Shown: positions 48,580-56,294 of the stretch, piece by piece
Layout: every line of letters starts with the position of its first letter
How positions within the stretch are numbered: position 1 is the stretch's first letter
Origin: Candidatus Edwardsiibacteriota bacterium
Lineage (GTDB): Bacteria; Edwardsbacteria; AC1; EtOH8
NCBI GenBank assembly: GCA_020053305.1
Contig: JAGVNJ010000051.1
Location: forward strand, 1 to 64,000
Length of the DNA stretch: 64,000 bases
Reading direction: 5' to 3'
Program-made: the position numbers and the translations under genes
Notes under the pieces: model-generated
The model's input: only the letters and a program-made list of their open reading frames with translations
Told to the model about the DNA's origin: nothing
The model's database searches: none

Positions 48580-48720
48580 TTTTGGTTGTACTCCGTCATT
48601 GCGGATTTGCTGTTTACCATTGGTTATTTACCCATAGGTGCACGACGCGCTGTGTCTATATATTGCCGGGGTTGTATTTTTAGGCCGGTAGACGGATGGA
48701 GCGGTGATGGTGTTAGAAAA

Positions 48721-49278
48721 TCATGATCCTGTTTTTCCCCTGTTGGGATTTTCGTCGTCCTGCGCCCAATATAAATGGTTCTCAATGATATATTGTTTGA
48801 TTTTATCGTATGATTTATCGTTTCGGATAACGTGTTCGTAGAACCGACCCTGCCAAATGGCTGGTTCGTTTTTTGCCCGTATTAGATTGATTTGTCTGGT
48901 CACCGCAGATTTATAAGACCGAATGATGGTCGATAATGACCCTATCTGCGGTTTCCCGAACAATGCGCGGGATGGTAGGGACACGGCATGCCGTGTCCCT
49001 ACAGGTGGTTCGGTAATTATAATGGTGCCGTGGATATGGTTGGGCATTATTACGTATTCGCCCAACAAAACGTTGGCAAAATGTTGTGGTATTGCCCGCC
49101 AACATTGATCGGCAATTTCTCCGTATGGGTTTAATTTCATTTGCCCATCGGCTATTTCGCCGAACAAACATTTTCGGTCCTGGGTGCAAATGGTTATGTA
49201 ATATGCACCGCCTTGCGAATAATCGTATTCCGGCAGGCGGATAGAACGGCGTTTATGTTTGGGATTGTTTGCGGACAT
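48721..49278 (-). CDS. REP-associated tyrosine transposase (RAYT, Y1_Tnp)
   Basis: 185 residues. Single-strand HUH nuclease of the IS200/IS605-related RAYT group that mobilises REP palindromes. Features: RSIRLPEYDYSQGGAYYITICTQDRKCLFG at the start, the HUH motif in YVIMPNHIHGTIII, and the catalytic Tyr region WQGRFYEHVIRNDKSYDKIKQYIIENHLYW. In the middle, VGTRHAVSLP is encoded by a 28-bp palindrome (48975-49002) identical to one downstream at 49407-49434. The enzyme gene has therefore itself been entered, in frame, by the repeat it may mobilise. Two more palindromes lie just upstream of its start. Confidence 0.88.
   Translation of the reverse strand: MSANNPKHKRRSIRLPEYDYSQGGAYYITICTQDRKCLFGEIADGQMKLNPYGEIADQCWRAIPQHFANVLLGEYVIMPNHIHGTIIITEPPVGTRHAVSLPSRALFGKPQIGSLSTIIRSYKSAVTRQINLIRAKNEPAIWQGRFYEHVIRNDKSYDKIKQYIIENHLYWAQDDENPNRGKTGS
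48975..49002. repeat. 28-bp palindromic REP-like element inside the RAYT gene
   Basis: Perfect palindrome with left arm GTAGGGACACGGCA. Identical to 49407-49434. In the gene it encodes VGTRHAVSLP on the minus strand. Confidence 0.9.
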
Positions 49279-49310
49279 GATATCATTGAATAAACGGTTA
49301 TCGCGTTACC

Positions 49311-49338
49311 GTAGGGGCACGGCATGCCGTGTCCCACA
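49311..49338. repeat. REP-like palindrome, imperfect copy
   Basis: Left arm GTAGGGGCACGGCA, right arm TGCCGTGTCCCACA. Lies 33 bp upstream of the RAYT start. Confidence 0.85.
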
Positions 49339-49406
49339 ATATCGGTTGGTTTTCATTCCCCTTTTGGCAATTCCCCCGGTTGTGTTTCCCCGTTGGTTAT
49401 TCCCCC

Positions 49407-49434
49407 GTAGGGACACGGCATGCCGTGTCCCTAC
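49407..49434. repeat. REP-like palindrome, perfect copy
   Basis: Perfect 28-bp palindrome identical to that at 48975-49002, in the spacer between the RAYT gene and the gene at 49500. With 49311-49338 it forms a pair in a REPIN-like arrangement. Confidence 0.9.
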
Positions 49435-49499
49435 AATGCCGGGGTTGTATTTTCAGGCCGGCAGGCGGGTGGGACGGCCACGGTGGTTTTTTAAAATAC

Positions 49500-50459
49500 T
49501 TATAAATTTATATTTACGATATCTTTACTATCACGCCAAAACATTTTTAATGGATAATATGGTGTTTCTTGATCTAGTGAATAATTGTAATAACAAATGC
49601 CTTTAATTTGTGGTTGTAGTTTCAATGCATTGGTCCAATAGGTTTCTATCATTTGTATTTCATGGCTATAGTGTTGACCGCTGTTTGTCATTTCACTGAA
49701 TATTGTTGGTATTGCAGCGTTAATTGTTGAACAATTATTTACCCCCAAGAAAACAAGATTTTTAGAATACTGCTTAAATTGATTAGCCTTTTGTGAACCT
49801 GTTAATTTATTTATTATTTTCACGGTGATCTCATCAAACCATGGGTAAGCATTATTACACCATCTTCTTGATATTGTGCCGACATCTGTTTTATCTATTT
49901 CTAACTGTATTCCAGATATTTGAAGCCCCTTAAAATCATTCTTTATAATCATTTCGTAAATGTCATTAATATAACTTTCAATTCTGTTATAATTCCCGTC
50001 TATAATGCCTGCATCACATATCATTGTTAATGATTTATCTGCCAAATAGCCGCTATATTCTAATTTCCACTGAAGCCGTTCTGTAAATATCGTATCCTCA
50101 ATAAAACCATTTAGGGTTGTGACTTCAATACCTATATTTTCGTTGTCTATATCTGCATAAGCGTCAATTCCACTTCTTCCAGTATTACGGATCACTTTGT
50201 TTTTTACTTGGAGGTAATCTATTATATAGTTTTCAGCAGTATTTGTAAAAAAATTTATGTCGCCCGTTAAAAACCAATCCTGTAATTTTCCGTTTGCACC
50301 GGACCCAATTAATTTTTGGACTTTACTGTCCAACGTTTTCAAACACCCATTCATTTGCGGTATTCCGAGCCATCTAACAATTAGTGGTGATTTCTCTGGC
50401 ACAATAGGCGTTATTAGAACATTTTTGCTTTGTAGATAGTTTCTTATATTATTACACAC
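49500..50459 (-). CDS. unknown protein coupled to the restriction-modification gene
   Basis: 319 residues from a GTG that overlaps the end of the restriction-modification gene by eight bases, so translation is coupled. AT-rich. No family recognised. SGIDAYADIDNENIGIEVTTLNGF has the spacing of a PD-(D/E)xK nuclease core (Asp, then Glu-x-Thr in place of Glu-x-Lys), so a degenerate nuclease is possible. Other notable parts are LTMICDAGIIDGNYNRIESYINDIYEMI, WFDEITVKIINKLTGSQKANQFKQYSKNLVFLG and the end PYYPLKMFWRDSKDIVNINL. The position suggests an accessory, specificity or nuclease role in the same defence system (inference). Confidence 0.7.
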   Translation of the reverse strand: MCNNIRNYLQSKNVLITPIVPEKSPLIVRWLGIPQMNGCLKTLDSKVQKLIGSGANGKLQDWFLTGDINFFTNTAENYIIDYLQVKNKVIRNTGRSGIDAYADIDNENIGIEVTTLNGFIEDTIFTERLQWKLEYSGYLADKSLTMICDAGIIDGNYNRIESYINDIYEMIIKNDFKGLQISGIQLEIDKTDVGTISRRWCNNAYPWFDEITVKIINKLTGSQKANQFKQYSKNLVFLGVNNCSTINAAIPTIFSEMTNSGQHYSHEIQMIETYWTNALKLQPQIKGICYYNYSLDQETPYYPLKMFWRDSKDIVNINL

Positions 50460-53427
50460 ATTCCCCCTCCACCACTTTTATCTCTTCTTCTGTTAGGCCG
50501 TATAGCTCGTAAACTAATTTGTCTATCTGCTTGTCTGTGGCGGCAATTTGGCGGGTTATGGTTTCTTTTTCGTTGGGGTTTTTAATTCCGTTGATATCAC
50601 TTTTAAGCTTTATTATTTTATCAACTAAAGCAACCATGTTTTTTCGATAGGCCTTATCATTTATTTTGTTTGTAATGGGAACTTGTCCCAAACTAAATAT
50701 TGTAACTTGAGGAAACGAGTTTTTAAAATCAGAAAAAGACAGTTTCCAATAATATTCTATTAACTTTGAATTTATTATGCCAAGTACTGATTTTTCAAAA
50801 TCTATATCTTGATGAATTATTGTAAATATATTGCCCGTTACTGCAATTGGCTTTTCTATAATTGCTGCCGTTGGCCTGGTGCCTATCTGCCTAATAACTA
50901 CTTTGTGCTTTGCAAAATGAACTGCTTCGTCCCAACAACCGCCGGATGTTTTAGGCCTAACAAATTTAACAAAGGATGAAGGGTTGTTTGCATAATACCT
51001 AAATACATCACCACCAGCCAAAATTGGCACATACTCATTGGTCATCTTCTTGTCGGAAAAATATTTATCTTTGTCGCCAGTAATTAATCCCCTGTTGACA
51101 GACGTAACATCTATCAACTTTTTATTTTCATTATTTAATTTAGCAATCAGACCAACATTTTCCTCATTAAGCAAAACATTCCATACTTTACCTTCCAGTT
51201 CCGAGAATCTACTTTGTTTAATACGGTTATAAACGATCTCTGAATTGTATTTTGCCTTTTCTAATTCTAATGTTGTTTTTATAATGTTATTATTCCGTAC
51301 ATTATCTCTTGGCTCTCTTTCAACTACCAATACACAGGTATAAACGTCTGCCTGTTCAAATACTTTTTCCCCAGCTAAACTAATTTTATTAATGCGTATA
51401 TTGCCTAACAGCCATTCTCTAAGGTTCTCAACATGTACATTATTTAACAGAGTTGCGGGTATAATATAACCAAGCAACCCATTATTTTTTTGTAAACGTA
51501 TTCCCTTTTGAAGAAATACGTGGAATAAATCGATTTTAAATTCCGCAACGGTATAATGGCTCTTTATATAATCTAAAATATCATTTGATGTATTATGTGG
51601 TTGTATCATTCTATACGGCGGATTCCCAATCACCGCATCAAAGCCTTGGCCTGAGCCTGTCGAATGACCGCCCCGCTTCATTATCTCCGGAAACTCCCTT
51701 TCCCAATCAAACGGGTTTATTTTGGCGCCGTCATCGTTACCGGACACGGCTTGCCGTGTCCCTACGGGTTTTTCCTTGGGCGACCGGCCGGTCGCCCCTA
51801 CGGTATCCCGCAATGATAACTGCCCCTCGTAAAAATCCGGCCCGATCAGACTATTTCCGCATTTTATATTCCCGTCAATATTGGGCAAGGCCCGTTCCTT
51901 GAACATCTTCAACTGCTGTTCCATGCCTTCCCGGCTTTCGTTCTCCAACACCTTCAAAAGCAAGGACAGCTTGGTCACTTCCACCGCCTGGCTGTCAATG
52001 TCCACCCCAAAGATATTGTTCAAAAGGATCTTCTTGGCCTCGCTGGTGGTCAAACGCCAGGCCCCGCGCCCGTCGGTAAAAACGGCCTTGGGGTATTTTT
52101 TGGGTTCGTTGGCCGTGTACCAGTTCAAATGGTATTCCAGCAGGTATTTATAGGCCCCTATCAGGAACGAGCCGGAGCCGCAGGCGGGGTCAAGGATTTT
52201 GATGGATTCGATTTCCTTCGGGGTCAGGGATGCAAGCCTCTCTCCGCTGCGGGGAGAGGTTGGAGAGGGGTCAGACTTGGGTGCCAACAACGCCCCCACC
52301 GTATTCTTCACAATGTAATCAACGATATATTGGGGTGTATAATAAACGCCCCCGGCCTTGCGCACTTCGGGCTTTTCCTCCACCTTGGCGTGGTGCCCGG
52401 CGGTTAAACGGATGACCTTGCCCAAAAACTGCTCGTAAACCTGGCCCAATATTTCTATCGGCATTTGCGAGAACACATAGGGCGAGGCCGGGTAATACAT
52501 CTGCCCGATTATTTCGCTTAGGGTCTTGTCGTCTATTTTCAGCCGTGTGGTTATCTGGTCTTTAGTGAAATCGAACAAACCGGCGTTGTAGCGGTCATCG
52601 GCCAGTTTAAAAAGGTTGATCAGCCTTTTGTAAATGTTTTCCGAGATTAGCAAACCTTTTAAATTTTCCGAAGCTTCCAGGTTTCTGTCTTCGCATATCC
52701 GCAGAAAAATGATCCGGTCAATTATGGTCTGCACCGCATAATTCAGGTCATCGTTGCTTACTTTTTCATTTCTCATGGCCAGATTCTTGGCCAATATCTC
52801 CCGCCAATGCTCTATGTCCTTTAAGAATTCCTTGTCCACCTCGGTAGTGCCCTTCTTCTTGGCGTCGGCCTGGGCATACTTGTCGAACGTGCCCTTTAGC
52901 ACGGCCTCTTTGGAGAACAGGTCGTATATCTCGTCGAATTTTTCCAGGTATTGGTCATAGGTGTAAAAAGCCACCCGGCCCACCGAGGCCTTGTCGGCGG
53001 GCTTGGGCTTTAGGCGGCAGTCGTAAACCGCCAATTCGTCAAAATCGGAAAGAATAGCCAAAGACAATTTTGCCGACCAGGAATAACGCCGCACCTGGTA
53101 GGCCGGTCCGATATCTTCTTTTATGGAAACCGACGGCTTCTTGGCCTCCACAAAAAACTTGCGCTGTCCGCCGACTCTGAAGGAATAATCCGGGGCCTTG
53201 GTCTGCTCCCCAACCTTGATGGCGTCTTCGTGGATCACGTCCTTGTACTGCTCGGCCAAGCCCTCTTTATTTGTTACATCCCAGCCCAAAGCCTCGAAAA
53301 ACGGATCGAGGAATTCCCGCCGCAGTTGGGTTTCGTTGTATGAACCGTTCCTGTAGCTTTCTTCGTTCTGACGGAATTTGAAGATCAGGTTTTCTATGGC
53401 TTTTATTGCTGCTTCTTTTTGGCTCAT
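50452..53427 (-). CDS. type IIG-like restriction enzyme / adenine-specific DNA methyltransferase
   Basis: 991 residues. The N-terminal nuclease domain has PD79-80 ... E94-A-K96 (PDYSFRVGGQRKFFVEAKK). A helical linker is followed by the N6-adenine methylase domain with motif I ILDPACGSGSFLIGAY (about 411-426) and the catalytic NPPY (602-605) in FDAVIGNPPYRMIQ. A C-terminal target-recognition region (about 720-950) follows. This is the Eco57I/type IIG layout, one chain for cutting and methylation. Three kinds of dispersed repeat are inserted in frame: residues 386-399 (PTSPRSGERLAS), 541-562 (VGATGRSP and VGTRQAVS) and 588-595 (HSTGSGQG). They seem to lie in loops, so the enzyme may still work. 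AT-rich core suggests acquisition. Confidence 0.9.
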   Translation of the reverse strand: MSQKEAAIKAIENLIFKFRQNEESYRNGSYNETQLRREFLDPFFEALGWDVTNKEGLAEQYKDVIHEDAIKVGEQTKAPDYSFRVGGQRKFFVEAKKPSVSIKEDIGPAYQVRRYSWSAKLSLAILSDFDELAVYDCRLKPKPADKASVGRVAFYTYDQYLEKFDEIYDLFSKEAVLKGTFDKYAQADAKKKGTTEVDKEFLKDIEHWREILAKNLAMRNEKVSNDDLNYAVQTIIDRIIFLRICEDRNLEASENLKGLLISENIYKRLINLFKLADDRYNAGLFDFTKDQITTRLKIDDKTLSEIIGQMYYPASPYVFSQMPIEILGQVYEQFLGKVIRLTAGHHAKVEEKPEVRKAGGVYYTPQYIVDYIVKNTVGALLAPKSDPSPTSPRSGERLASLTPKEIESIKILDPACGSGSFLIGAYKYLLEYHLNWYTANEPKKYPKAVFTDGRGAWRLTTSEAKKILLNNIFGVDIDSQAVEVTKLSLLLKVLENESREGMEQQLKMFKERALPNIDGNIKCGNSLIGPDFYEGQLSLRDTVGATGRSPKEKPVGTRQAVSGNDDGAKINPFDWEREFPEIMKRGGHSTGSGQGFDAVIGNPPYRMIQPHNTSNDILDYIKSHYTVAEFKIDLFHVFLQKGIRLQKNNGLLGYIIPATLLNNVHVENLREWLLGNIRINKISLAGEKVFEQADVYTCVLVVEREPRDNVRNNNIIKTTLELEKAKYNSEIVYNRIKQSRFSELEGKVWNVLLNEENVGLIAKLNNENKKLIDVTSVNRGLITGDKDKYFSDKKMTNEYVPILAGGDVFRYYANNPSSFVKFVRPKTSGGCWDEAVHFAKHKVVIRQIGTRPTAAIIEKPIAVTGNIFTIIHQDIDFEKSVLGIINSKLIEYYWKLSFSDFKNSFPQVTIFSLGQVPITNKINDKAYRKNMVALVDKIIKLKSDINGIKNPNEKETITRQIAATDKQIDKLVYELYGLTEEEIKVVEGECV
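51645..51672. repeat. dispersed repeat inserted in the restriction-modification gene (TTCGACAGGCTCAGG type)
   Basis: 'GGCCTGAGCCTGTCGAATGA' on the + strand encodes HSTGSGQG in reverse, directly before the conserved FDAVIGNPPY. A related word is in the Fe-S flavoprotein gene at about 61955. Confidence 0.65.
51740..51801. repeat. two adjacent REP-like palindromes inside the restriction-modification gene
   Basis: First: GGACACGGC-TT-GCCGTGTCC (51742-51761), related to the RAYT-flanking palindrome. Second: GGGCGACCGGCCGGTCGCCC with CTAC (51778-51801), identical over 24 bp to 2418-2441. Together they encode VGATGRSPKEKPVGTRQAVS. Confidence 0.85.
52236..52275. repeat. CCTCTCCGCTGCGGGGAGAGG-type repeat inside the restriction-modification gene
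   Basis: Hairpin CTCTCCGC-TG-CGGGGAGAG followed by TTGGAGAGGGGTCAG. Related copies lie in spacers at about 1987-2010, 4630-4662, 6332-6377 and 41553-41590. It encodes PTSPRSGERLAS here. Confidence 0.75.
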
Positions 53428-55565: not shown

Positions 55566-55594
55566 GTAGGGGCAGGTCTCAGACCTGCCCCTAC
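55566..55594. repeat. palindromic REP-like element (GCAGGTCTCAGACCTGC type)
   Basis: GTAGGGGCAGGTCT-C-AGACCTGCCCCTAC arms, 29 bp, perfect around one central base. Same GTAGGGG/CCCCTAC ends as the other palindromes with a different centre. Confidence 0.85.
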
Positions 55595-56265: not shown

Positions 56266-56294
56266 GTAGGGGATGGTTTCAAACCATCCCCTAC
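56266..56294. repeat. palindromic REP-like element (ATGGTTTCAAACCAT type)
   Basis: GTAGGGGATGGTTT-C-AAACCATCCCCTAC arms, 29 bp. Third centre variant of the GTAGGGG/CCCCTAC family. Confidence 0.85.

What the first reader, a model, noticed from the sequence alone, without database searches (positions are those of the whole stretch)
48721..49434. RAYT gene carries and is flanked by the palindromes it may mobilise
The HUH transposase has a perfect 28-bp palindrome inside its own coding sequence (encoding VGTRHAVSLP) and two more just upstream (one identical, one imperfect). Elements with the same GTAGGG/CCCTAC ends but different centres (2410, 51740, 51778, 55566, 56266) are scattered in the window. 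This supports a live or recent REP/RAYT system with several centre types, and self-insertion is unusual.
Basis: partly seen in the sequence, partly recalled or inferred. Interest (0 to 1): 0.65.

Follow-up and report, generated by a model that had tools for sequence, protein, structure and literature searches.

The report
Transposase gene carrying its own target hairpin
This bacterial gene for a DNA-nicking enzyme (a RAYT) carries, inside its own coding sequence, a copy of the small DNA hairpin that it probably recognises; such genes were already known, but comparing about 165 relatives suggests that the hairpin and the neighbouring DNA-reading helix change together and can be exchanged between genes as one cassette.

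Summary
A 185-aa HUH/Y1 transposase (48721-49278, minus strand) has a perfect 28-bp palindrome in frame (48975-49002), an identical copy and an imperfect copy upstream, and a decayed one downstream.

Self-insertion is not unusual in this family. The protein fits TnpA_REP (RAYT) subclass 2.4, for which in-frame 'double-foot' REPs inside the gene are published (Quentin 2018, PMC6006769). Of 114 relatives tested, 92 carry a palindrome in the same loop.

What looks new: the palindrome's sequence follows the helix coded just after it (alphaC, the equivalent of E. coli's DNA-binding alpha3). The partial correlation is 0.435, against at most 0.18 in 2000 permutations. The link held in a separate cyanobacterial set. 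It also held for palindromes flanking genes that lack an internal one, and for dispersed genomic copies. At two loci in the host's family, the palindrome+helix segment differs between species while the flanks are conserved. I infer a specificity cassette: the cognate site beside the helix that reads it. No binding or cleavage was tested.

'Live' is not supported here: the exact core occurs only twice in the 2.59-Mb genome, both times at this gene.

The parts
48721..49278 (-). RAYT / TnpA_REP gene, 185 aa, intact ORF
   Evidence: ORF; NCBIfam NF047646 REP_Tyr_transpos E=5e-16, 58.8 bits, below the curated cut-off of 80; Pfam Y1_Tnp 21.4 bits, below the cut-off of 23; AlphaFold model, mean pLDDT 80.7, top PDB hit 4er8
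49030..49038 (-). HUH motif (H81-I82-H83 in MPNHIHG)
   Evidence: invariant columns N80, H81, H83 in alignment A1
48975..49002 (-). internal perfect 28-bp double-foot REP, coding VGTRHAVSLP (residues 93-102), a loop of low model confidence
   Evidence: pLDDT <50 for residues 95-107; ssDNA hairpin -13.8 kcal/mol, z -4.2
48883..48939 (-). codons of helix alphaC (residues 114-132, SLSTIIRSYKSAVTRQINL), the inferred recognition helix
   Evidence: model helix 115-133; co-variation peak with palindrome sequence; equivalent alpha3 of E. coli TnpA_REP is described as DNA-binding (PMC8266576)
48850..48855 (-). W142-Q143; the equivalent region contacts the GTAG foot in E. coli TnpA_REP
   Evidence: invariant in A1; aligned to W94-Q95 of 4er8; contacts from PMC8266576 and PMC6006769
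48790..48792 (-). putative catalytic Tyr163 (YIIENH; relatives mostly YIxxNP)
   Evidence: invariant Y163 and N167 in A1
49311..49338 (.). imperfect copy of the same palindrome, 33 bp upstream of the start codon
   Evidence: weak ssDNA fold, z -0.8
49407..49434 (.). identical perfect 28-bp palindrome, 129 bp upstream
   Evidence: ssDNA fold z -5.05
48617..48712 (.). downstream 96-bp direct repeat (76% identical to 49390-49485) containing a decayed palindrome at 48634-48662
   Evidence: no hairpin left
49390..49485 (.). upstream 96-bp direct repeat containing the intact palindrome; includes a 21-bp stretch 86% like the RAYT 5' coding end
51741..51797 (-). two palindromes (centre types ACACGGC and GCGACCGG) in frame inside a restriction-modification methylase gene (50452-53427), coding VGATGRSPKEKPVGTRQAVS
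   Evidence: this segment is missing in two plasmid homologues
2410..2441 (.). dispersed palindrome, other centre (GCGACCGGCCGGTCGC), between genes
55566..55594 (.). dispersed palindrome, other centre (GCAGGTCTCAGACCTGC), between genes
56266..56294 (.). dispersed palindrome, GGTTT-centre type (GATGGTTTCAAACCATC), between genes

Best explanation
The gene is a TnpA_REP (RAYT) of Quentin's subclass 2.4 (Bertels group 4). Inside its own coding sequence, in the loop between the HUH strand and helix alphaC, it carries a copy of its cognate double-foot REP. Inferred mechanism: on single-stranded DNA the palindrome folds into a hairpin with a GTAG foot; the conserved WQ region reads the foot, and one face of helix alphaC reads the inner stem and centre. 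Because palindrome and helix codons lie next to each other, they are inherited, transferred and exchanged as one specificity cassette, so site and reader stay matched. Shown here: the anatomy; the helix-palindrome association; matching flanking and dispersed copies; and two loci where the cassette differs between species with conserved flanks. Inferred: physical recognition by alphaC; cleavage at the foot; that the internal copy is kept because it is useful rather than merely tolerated. In this genome the window's own type shows no sign of recent spread.
For: Prevalence: 92 of 114 relatives from many phyla have a palindrome of at least 16 bp between HUH and WQ. It is kept as DNA, not as peptide: 67 distinct 8-nt inner arms among 108 strong palindromes, 102 without a stem mismatch; the foot lies in frame 0 (51) or 1 (31), never in frame 2, where GTAG would give a TAG stop; near-identical palindromes read in different frames still go with similar helices (identity 0.60 against 0.35 for dissimilar palindromes). 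Helix link: partial r=0.435 given the rest of the protein (2000 permutations, max 0.18); windows not touching the helix at most 0.19; the best columns (-5, -2, -1, +2, +3 around the FK motif) are spaced as on one helix face, while variable columns +7 and +10 show almost nothing. Second set: 29 cyanobacterial RAYTs, helix-nearest neighbour 0.724 against 0.592 for the rest of the protein and 0.50 at random; 0 of 10,000 shuffles. Genes without an internal palindrome: flanking palindromes predicted from the helix, 0.818 against 0.515, 8 of 8, p=0.004; own internal against own flanking 0.865 against 0.508. Dispersed copies: outside the host's family, E type 4.0 against 0.2 per genome and G/H type 12.6 against 1.1 (p about 1e-3); G057 has one detected RAYT of this kind and 81 copies, the listed ones nearly all of its internal type. 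Cassette exchange: L034/L065 same locus, 5' flank 93%, nt 146-393 of the gene 55%, rest of gene and 3' flank 97%; at a second locus L072/L073 hold a D cassette but keep flanking G palindromes, where L057 holds G.
Against: No binding, cleavage or mobility data for this subclass. In the cyanobacterial set alone the partial correlation is weak (0.233, permutation max 0.195), and relatedness of the rest of the protein explains more (0.357). Within the host's family, dispersed palindromes match resident RAYT types only 38% of the time against 27% after relabelling, not significant; the abundant GGTTT type in G000 has no matching resident RAYT found. In E. coli the upper stem-loop sequence is not read specifically (PMC8266576). 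Palindrome scoring, similarity measure and type pooling (E, G/H) were chosen after seeing the data and not corrected for the number of analyses. The two exchanged loci could partly reflect rapid local divergence.
Confidence: 0.72

Rival explanations
1. Tolerated passengers: REPs insert again and again into a permissive surface loop of their own transposase gene and have no role there. The match with the helix reflects only that each RAYT spreads its own REP type.
For: The loop is of low model confidence; Quentin et al. regard the insertions as likely of little impact; REPs also sit in frame in unrelated genes, such as the methylase in this window; perfect palindromes persist in RAYT copies with stop codons (L051 and L058).
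Against: About 80% occupancy of one loop across phyla and nearly perfect stems with 67 different inner arms are more than passive decay would leave, though continual re-insertion could give the same.
Confidence: 0.35
2. Linkage by descent only: palindrome and helix are adjacent, so they share ancestry, and no protein-DNA reading by alphaC is involved.
For: Correlation falls with distance on the C-terminal side; overall relatedness also contributes (partial r 0.227-0.357 given the helix).
Against: The helix predicts palindromes outside the coding sequence in RAYTs lacking an internal one and dispersed genomic copies; the association persists across reading frames; the adjacent beta-strand window shows little signal and variable helix columns +7 and +10 do not co-vary.
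Confidence: 0.2
3. Autoregulation: the hairpin in the mRNA or in single-stranded DNA of the gene is bound by the RAYT itself or slows translation, limiting expression. This could coexist with the cassette idea.
For: A stable hairpin with no mismatch in mid-gene (ssDNA -13.8 kcal/mol) and others upstream of the start; regulation of RAYTs by REP hairpins has been suggested (PMC3733652).
Against: Not tested here; about 20% of relatives lack the internal copy.
Confidence: 0.2
4. Chance palindrome or ordinary terminator-like repeat.
For: Other inverted repeats occur in the window.
Against: Perfect 28 bp in a fixed loop, repeated in 92 of 114 relatives.
Confidence: 0.01

Closest known systems
TnpA_REP subclass 2.4 (Quentin et al. 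2018, PMC6006769; Bertels group 4 RAYT)
   Same: NHIH and WQ motifs, double-foot REPs (GTAG...CTAC), REP inserted in frame between HUH and Y motifs, flanking REPs, patchy occurrence across phyla.
   Different: Y motif here is YIIENH, not YIxNNP. In the sections I read, that paper treats the insert as probably neutral and reports neither a link between palindrome and helix nor cassette exchange.
E. coli TnpA_REP / REPtron (subclass 2.2; PDB 4er8)
   Same: Fold, WQ...EH..R foot-reading region, flanking GTAG palindromes.
   Different: E. coli REPs are bulged with GTAG at one end, and their upper stem is not read by sequence; insertion of REPs inside the gene is reported as unique to subclass 2.4 (some 2.8 members also carry one).
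Group 3 RAYTs of Pseudomonas and Stenotrophomonas with 'orthoswitch' of REP class (Nunvar 2013, PMC3686654)
   Same: Orthologous RAYTs associated with different REP classes; REP abundance depends on the cognate RAYT.
   Different: There the REPs flank the gene; here the site lies inside the coding sequence and is exchanged together with the helix codons.
Rickettsia palindromic elements and intragenic GTAG/CGTC REPs (PMC3733652)
   Same: Palindromes inserted in frame in proteins, as in the methylase gene of this window.
   Different: Those sit in unrelated host genes; here the main host gene is the presumed mobiliser itself.

Membership tests
TnpA_REP / RAYT | HUH motif and single catalytic Tyr in the Y1 transposase fold | tested here: met
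   H81-x-H83 and Y163 invariant in A1; model matches 4er8, E=5e-7
TnpA_REP / RAYT | Reaches the curated cut-off of the NCBIfam REP-associated tyrosine transposase model (a naming threshold) | tested here: not met
   58.8 bits against a cut-off of 80, E=5e-16: a clear relative but below the naming threshold; filed here by motifs, fold and associated palindromes
TnpA_REP / RAYT | Gene flanked by GTAG-footed palindromes | tested here: met
   49407-49434 and 49311-49338 upstream; decayed copy downstream
Subclass 2.4 | NH[IFV]H and WQ motifs | tested here: met
   PNHIHG and WQGRF
Subclass 2.4 | Y motif YIxNNP | tested here: inconclusive
   window has YIIENH (N then H in place of NP); most relatives have NP
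Subclass 2.4 | Double-foot REP (GT[AG]G...C[TC]AC) inserted in frame between HUH and Y motifs | tested here: met
   48975-49002; palindromes in the same loop in 92 of 114 relatives
Subclass 2.4 | Clusters with published 2.4 sequences in a phylogeny | not tested
   published sequences were not at hand; assignment rests on motifs and anatomy
IS200/IS605 insertion sequence | High copy of near-identical mobile units with Y---Q motif and subterminal hairpins | tested here: not met
   other RAYTs in this genome are at most 61% identical; no Y---Q motif
Active REP/RAYT system | Recent amplification of the cognate REP in the genome | tested here: not met
   only two exact copies, both at the gene
Active REP/RAYT system | Cleavage of the cognate ssDNA REP | not testable with these tools
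   needs purified protein

The most novel reading that the evidence does not exclude
Subclass 2.4 RAYTs are self-labelled, modular single-strand nucleases. A short cassette (cognate hairpin plus recognition helix) sets specificity, is swapped between genes by recombination, and follows a partly readable helix-to-palindrome code (for example PKIIGYFKMN with AATTCATGAATT, GRLIGAFKTVSTK with GGTTCGCGAACC, EIVRAFKTFSARR with GGTTTnAAACC).
Probability: 0.55. Interest if true: 0.75.

Novelty: new member of a known kind. Interest (0 to 1): 0.55.

Why it matters
How RAYTs recognise perfectly palindromic REPs is an open question (PMC8266576). If the internal palindrome marks each enzyme's own site, then every such gene states its substrate in its sequence, and specificity can be read and tested from genome data alone. 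It would also explain how REP types move between distant bacteria without losing their matching enzyme, and could offer a set of small HUH nucleases with swappable hairpin specificity.

Tried and rejected
Crude enrichment of GTAGGG-N-CCCTAC in genomes with a RAYT was significant, but so was the reversed control pattern, so it was set aside and replaced by type-specific patterns whose controls were zero. Matching of dispersed palindromes to resident RAYT types within the host's family was not significant. Phylum searches around the host (10 genomes) and around G057 (1 genome) were too small for validation; a phylum reached through G056 was used instead. It appears to be Cyanobacteria, since a G313 contig length (5,464,396) equals that of Planktothrix PCC7821. 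Exact residue mapping of E. coli K82 onto alphaC was not possible from the sequence alignment. Messing 2012 was not held, and Bertels 2017 did not appear in the library searches.

Full report
OBSERVATION. The ORF at 48721-49278 on the minus strand codes a 185-residue protein. Its best family matches are NCBIfam REP_Tyr_transpos (58.8 bits, below the curated cut-off of 80) and Pfam Y1_Tnp (21.4 bits, below 23). An AlphaFold model (mean pLDDT 80.7) has E. coli TnpA_REP bound to a REP, 4er8, as its best structural match. The perfect 28-bp palindrome at 48975-49002 codes VGTRHAVSLP. An identical one lies at 49407-49434 and an imperfect one at 49311-49338. A decayed fourth copy lies downstream in a 96-bp direct repeat. 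As ssDNA the internal copy and the perfect upstream copy fold strongly (z -4.2 and -5.05), while the other two do not.

GENOME. The host genome (2.59 Mb) holds only two exact copies of this core, both at this gene, and 11 with up to three mismatches. It holds 23 GTAGGG-N-CCCTAC matches of many centre types. Five RAYT genes in this genome, two of them with stop codons, each carry their own internal palindrome with a different centre. The host lies in a small group of ten genomes; one relative (G005) appears to be the UBP2 genome UBA4780, from matching contig length and coordinates.

KNOWN PART. Quentin et al. [quoted passage not shown] So self-insertion is a family trait. I collected relatives by a contig scan with named organisms and by genome search; 92 of 114 had a palindrome of at least 16 bp between HUH and WQ.

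PALINDROME AND HELIX. Sorting relatives by the helix that follows the loop showed that helix and palindrome types go together across phyla. I then measured it in 79 relatives. Palindrome similarity correlates with helix identity at 0.468, and at 0.435 once the N- and C-terminal parts are accounted for (2000 permutations, maximum 0.18). Sliding windows peak at the helix (0.427); windows not touching it reach at most 0.19. The strongest columns are -5, -2, -1, +2 and +3 around the FK motif, spaced as on one helix face; the variable columns +7 and +10 show almost nothing. In E. coli TnpA_REP the corresponding alpha3 is described as the DNA-binding helix (PMC8266576).

TESTS AGAINST LINKAGE. (a) A separate set of 29 RAYTs from another phylum, apparently Cyanobacteria: the helix-nearest neighbour among the other relatives had a more similar palindrome (0.724) than the nearest neighbour by the rest of the protein (0.592, p=0.006) or random ones (0.50); none of 10,000 shuffles reached 0.724. 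Within that set alone the partial correlation was weak, 0.233 against a permutation maximum of 0.195, and general relatedness explained more. (b) Eight RAYTs without an internal palindrome but with a flanking one: the flanking palindrome was closer to the helix-predicted type than to random types in all eight (0.818 against 0.515, p=0.004); where both exist, the internal and flanking ones agree (0.865 against 0.508). (c) Dispersed copies: two type patterns with zero control hits were counted in 80 genomes each. Outside the host's family, genomes with the matching helix type had on average 4.0 against 0.2 (E) and 12.6 against 1.1 (G/H) copies outside the RAYT gene (the G057 count in it was estimated from the listing). 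G057, with one detected RAYT of this kind, has 81 copies, the listed ones nearly all of its internal type. (d) The palindrome occurs in reading frames 0 and 1, never in frame 2, where GTAG would bring a stop, and the helix association holds between frames.

EXCHANGE. At one locus in two species of a genus (L034, L065) the 5' flank is 93% identical, nt 1-145 of the gene 80%, nt 146-393 55%, and the rest of the gene and the 3' flank 97%; the middle holds different palindromes (GGTTTGAAACC against GGTTCGCGAACC) and different helices. At a second locus L057 holds type G, while L072 and L073 hold type D, with conserved 3' flanks and with type-G palindromes still flanking the gene.

LIMITS. No biochemistry. 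Scoring rules, similarity measure and type pooling were settled while looking at the data, several analyses were run, and p values are not corrected for this. RAYT inventories are incomplete in some genomes (at most eight candidates scored per genome), which blurs test (c). Within the host's own family the match between dispersed and resident types was not significant. The generic enrichment test was confounded and is not used. The novelty of the helix link and of the cassette exchange rests on the papers readable here; Bertels 2017 and Messing 2012 were not.

VERDICT. A new member of a known kind (subclass 2.4 RAYT with internal REP), probably not recently active for its own type. The comparison it prompted suggests a readable, exchangeable specificity cassette, which is testable.

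Noticed in passing
window 51741-51797, gene 50452-53427(-): Two palindromes of different centre types sit in frame in a restriction-modification methylase gene, coding VGATGRSPKEKPVGTRQAVS, in a stretch missing from two plasmid homologues.
   Followed up: partly
window about 51650-51670: In the same methylase gene, the stretch ATTCGACAGGCTCAGG (coding within HSTGSGQ) is also missing in the homologues and resembles another short repeat I recall from many bacterial genomes.
   Followed up: no
window 48617-48712 and 49390-49485: The RAYT gene is flanked by 96-bp direct repeats (76% identical); a 21-bp piece of each resembles the 5' coding end of the RAYT itself, as if truncated RAYT remnants flank the gene.
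   Followed up: partly
L051 (G000:C9) and L058 (G000:C76): Two different RAYT genes of the host genome carry a similar palindromic insert (CCCTCTCCTAATGCTTTAGGAGAGGG) with stop codons at the same place, after RRSIRLP, yet their internal REPs are still perfect.
   Followed up: no
L072 and L073 (G002, G006): RAYT genes with two or three palindromes in the loop, lengthening the loop by up to about 70 residues without breaking the frame.
   Followed up: no
G056: Genome with 25 GTAGGG palindromes, mostly of the GCGAAAAATTTTTCGC type, in which no RAYT of this subclass was found at E<=1e-30, possibly leftovers of a lost RAYT.
   Followed up: partly
G041: 33 copies of the GGTTTnAAACC palindrome but no RAYT hit with the window protein.
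   Followed up: no
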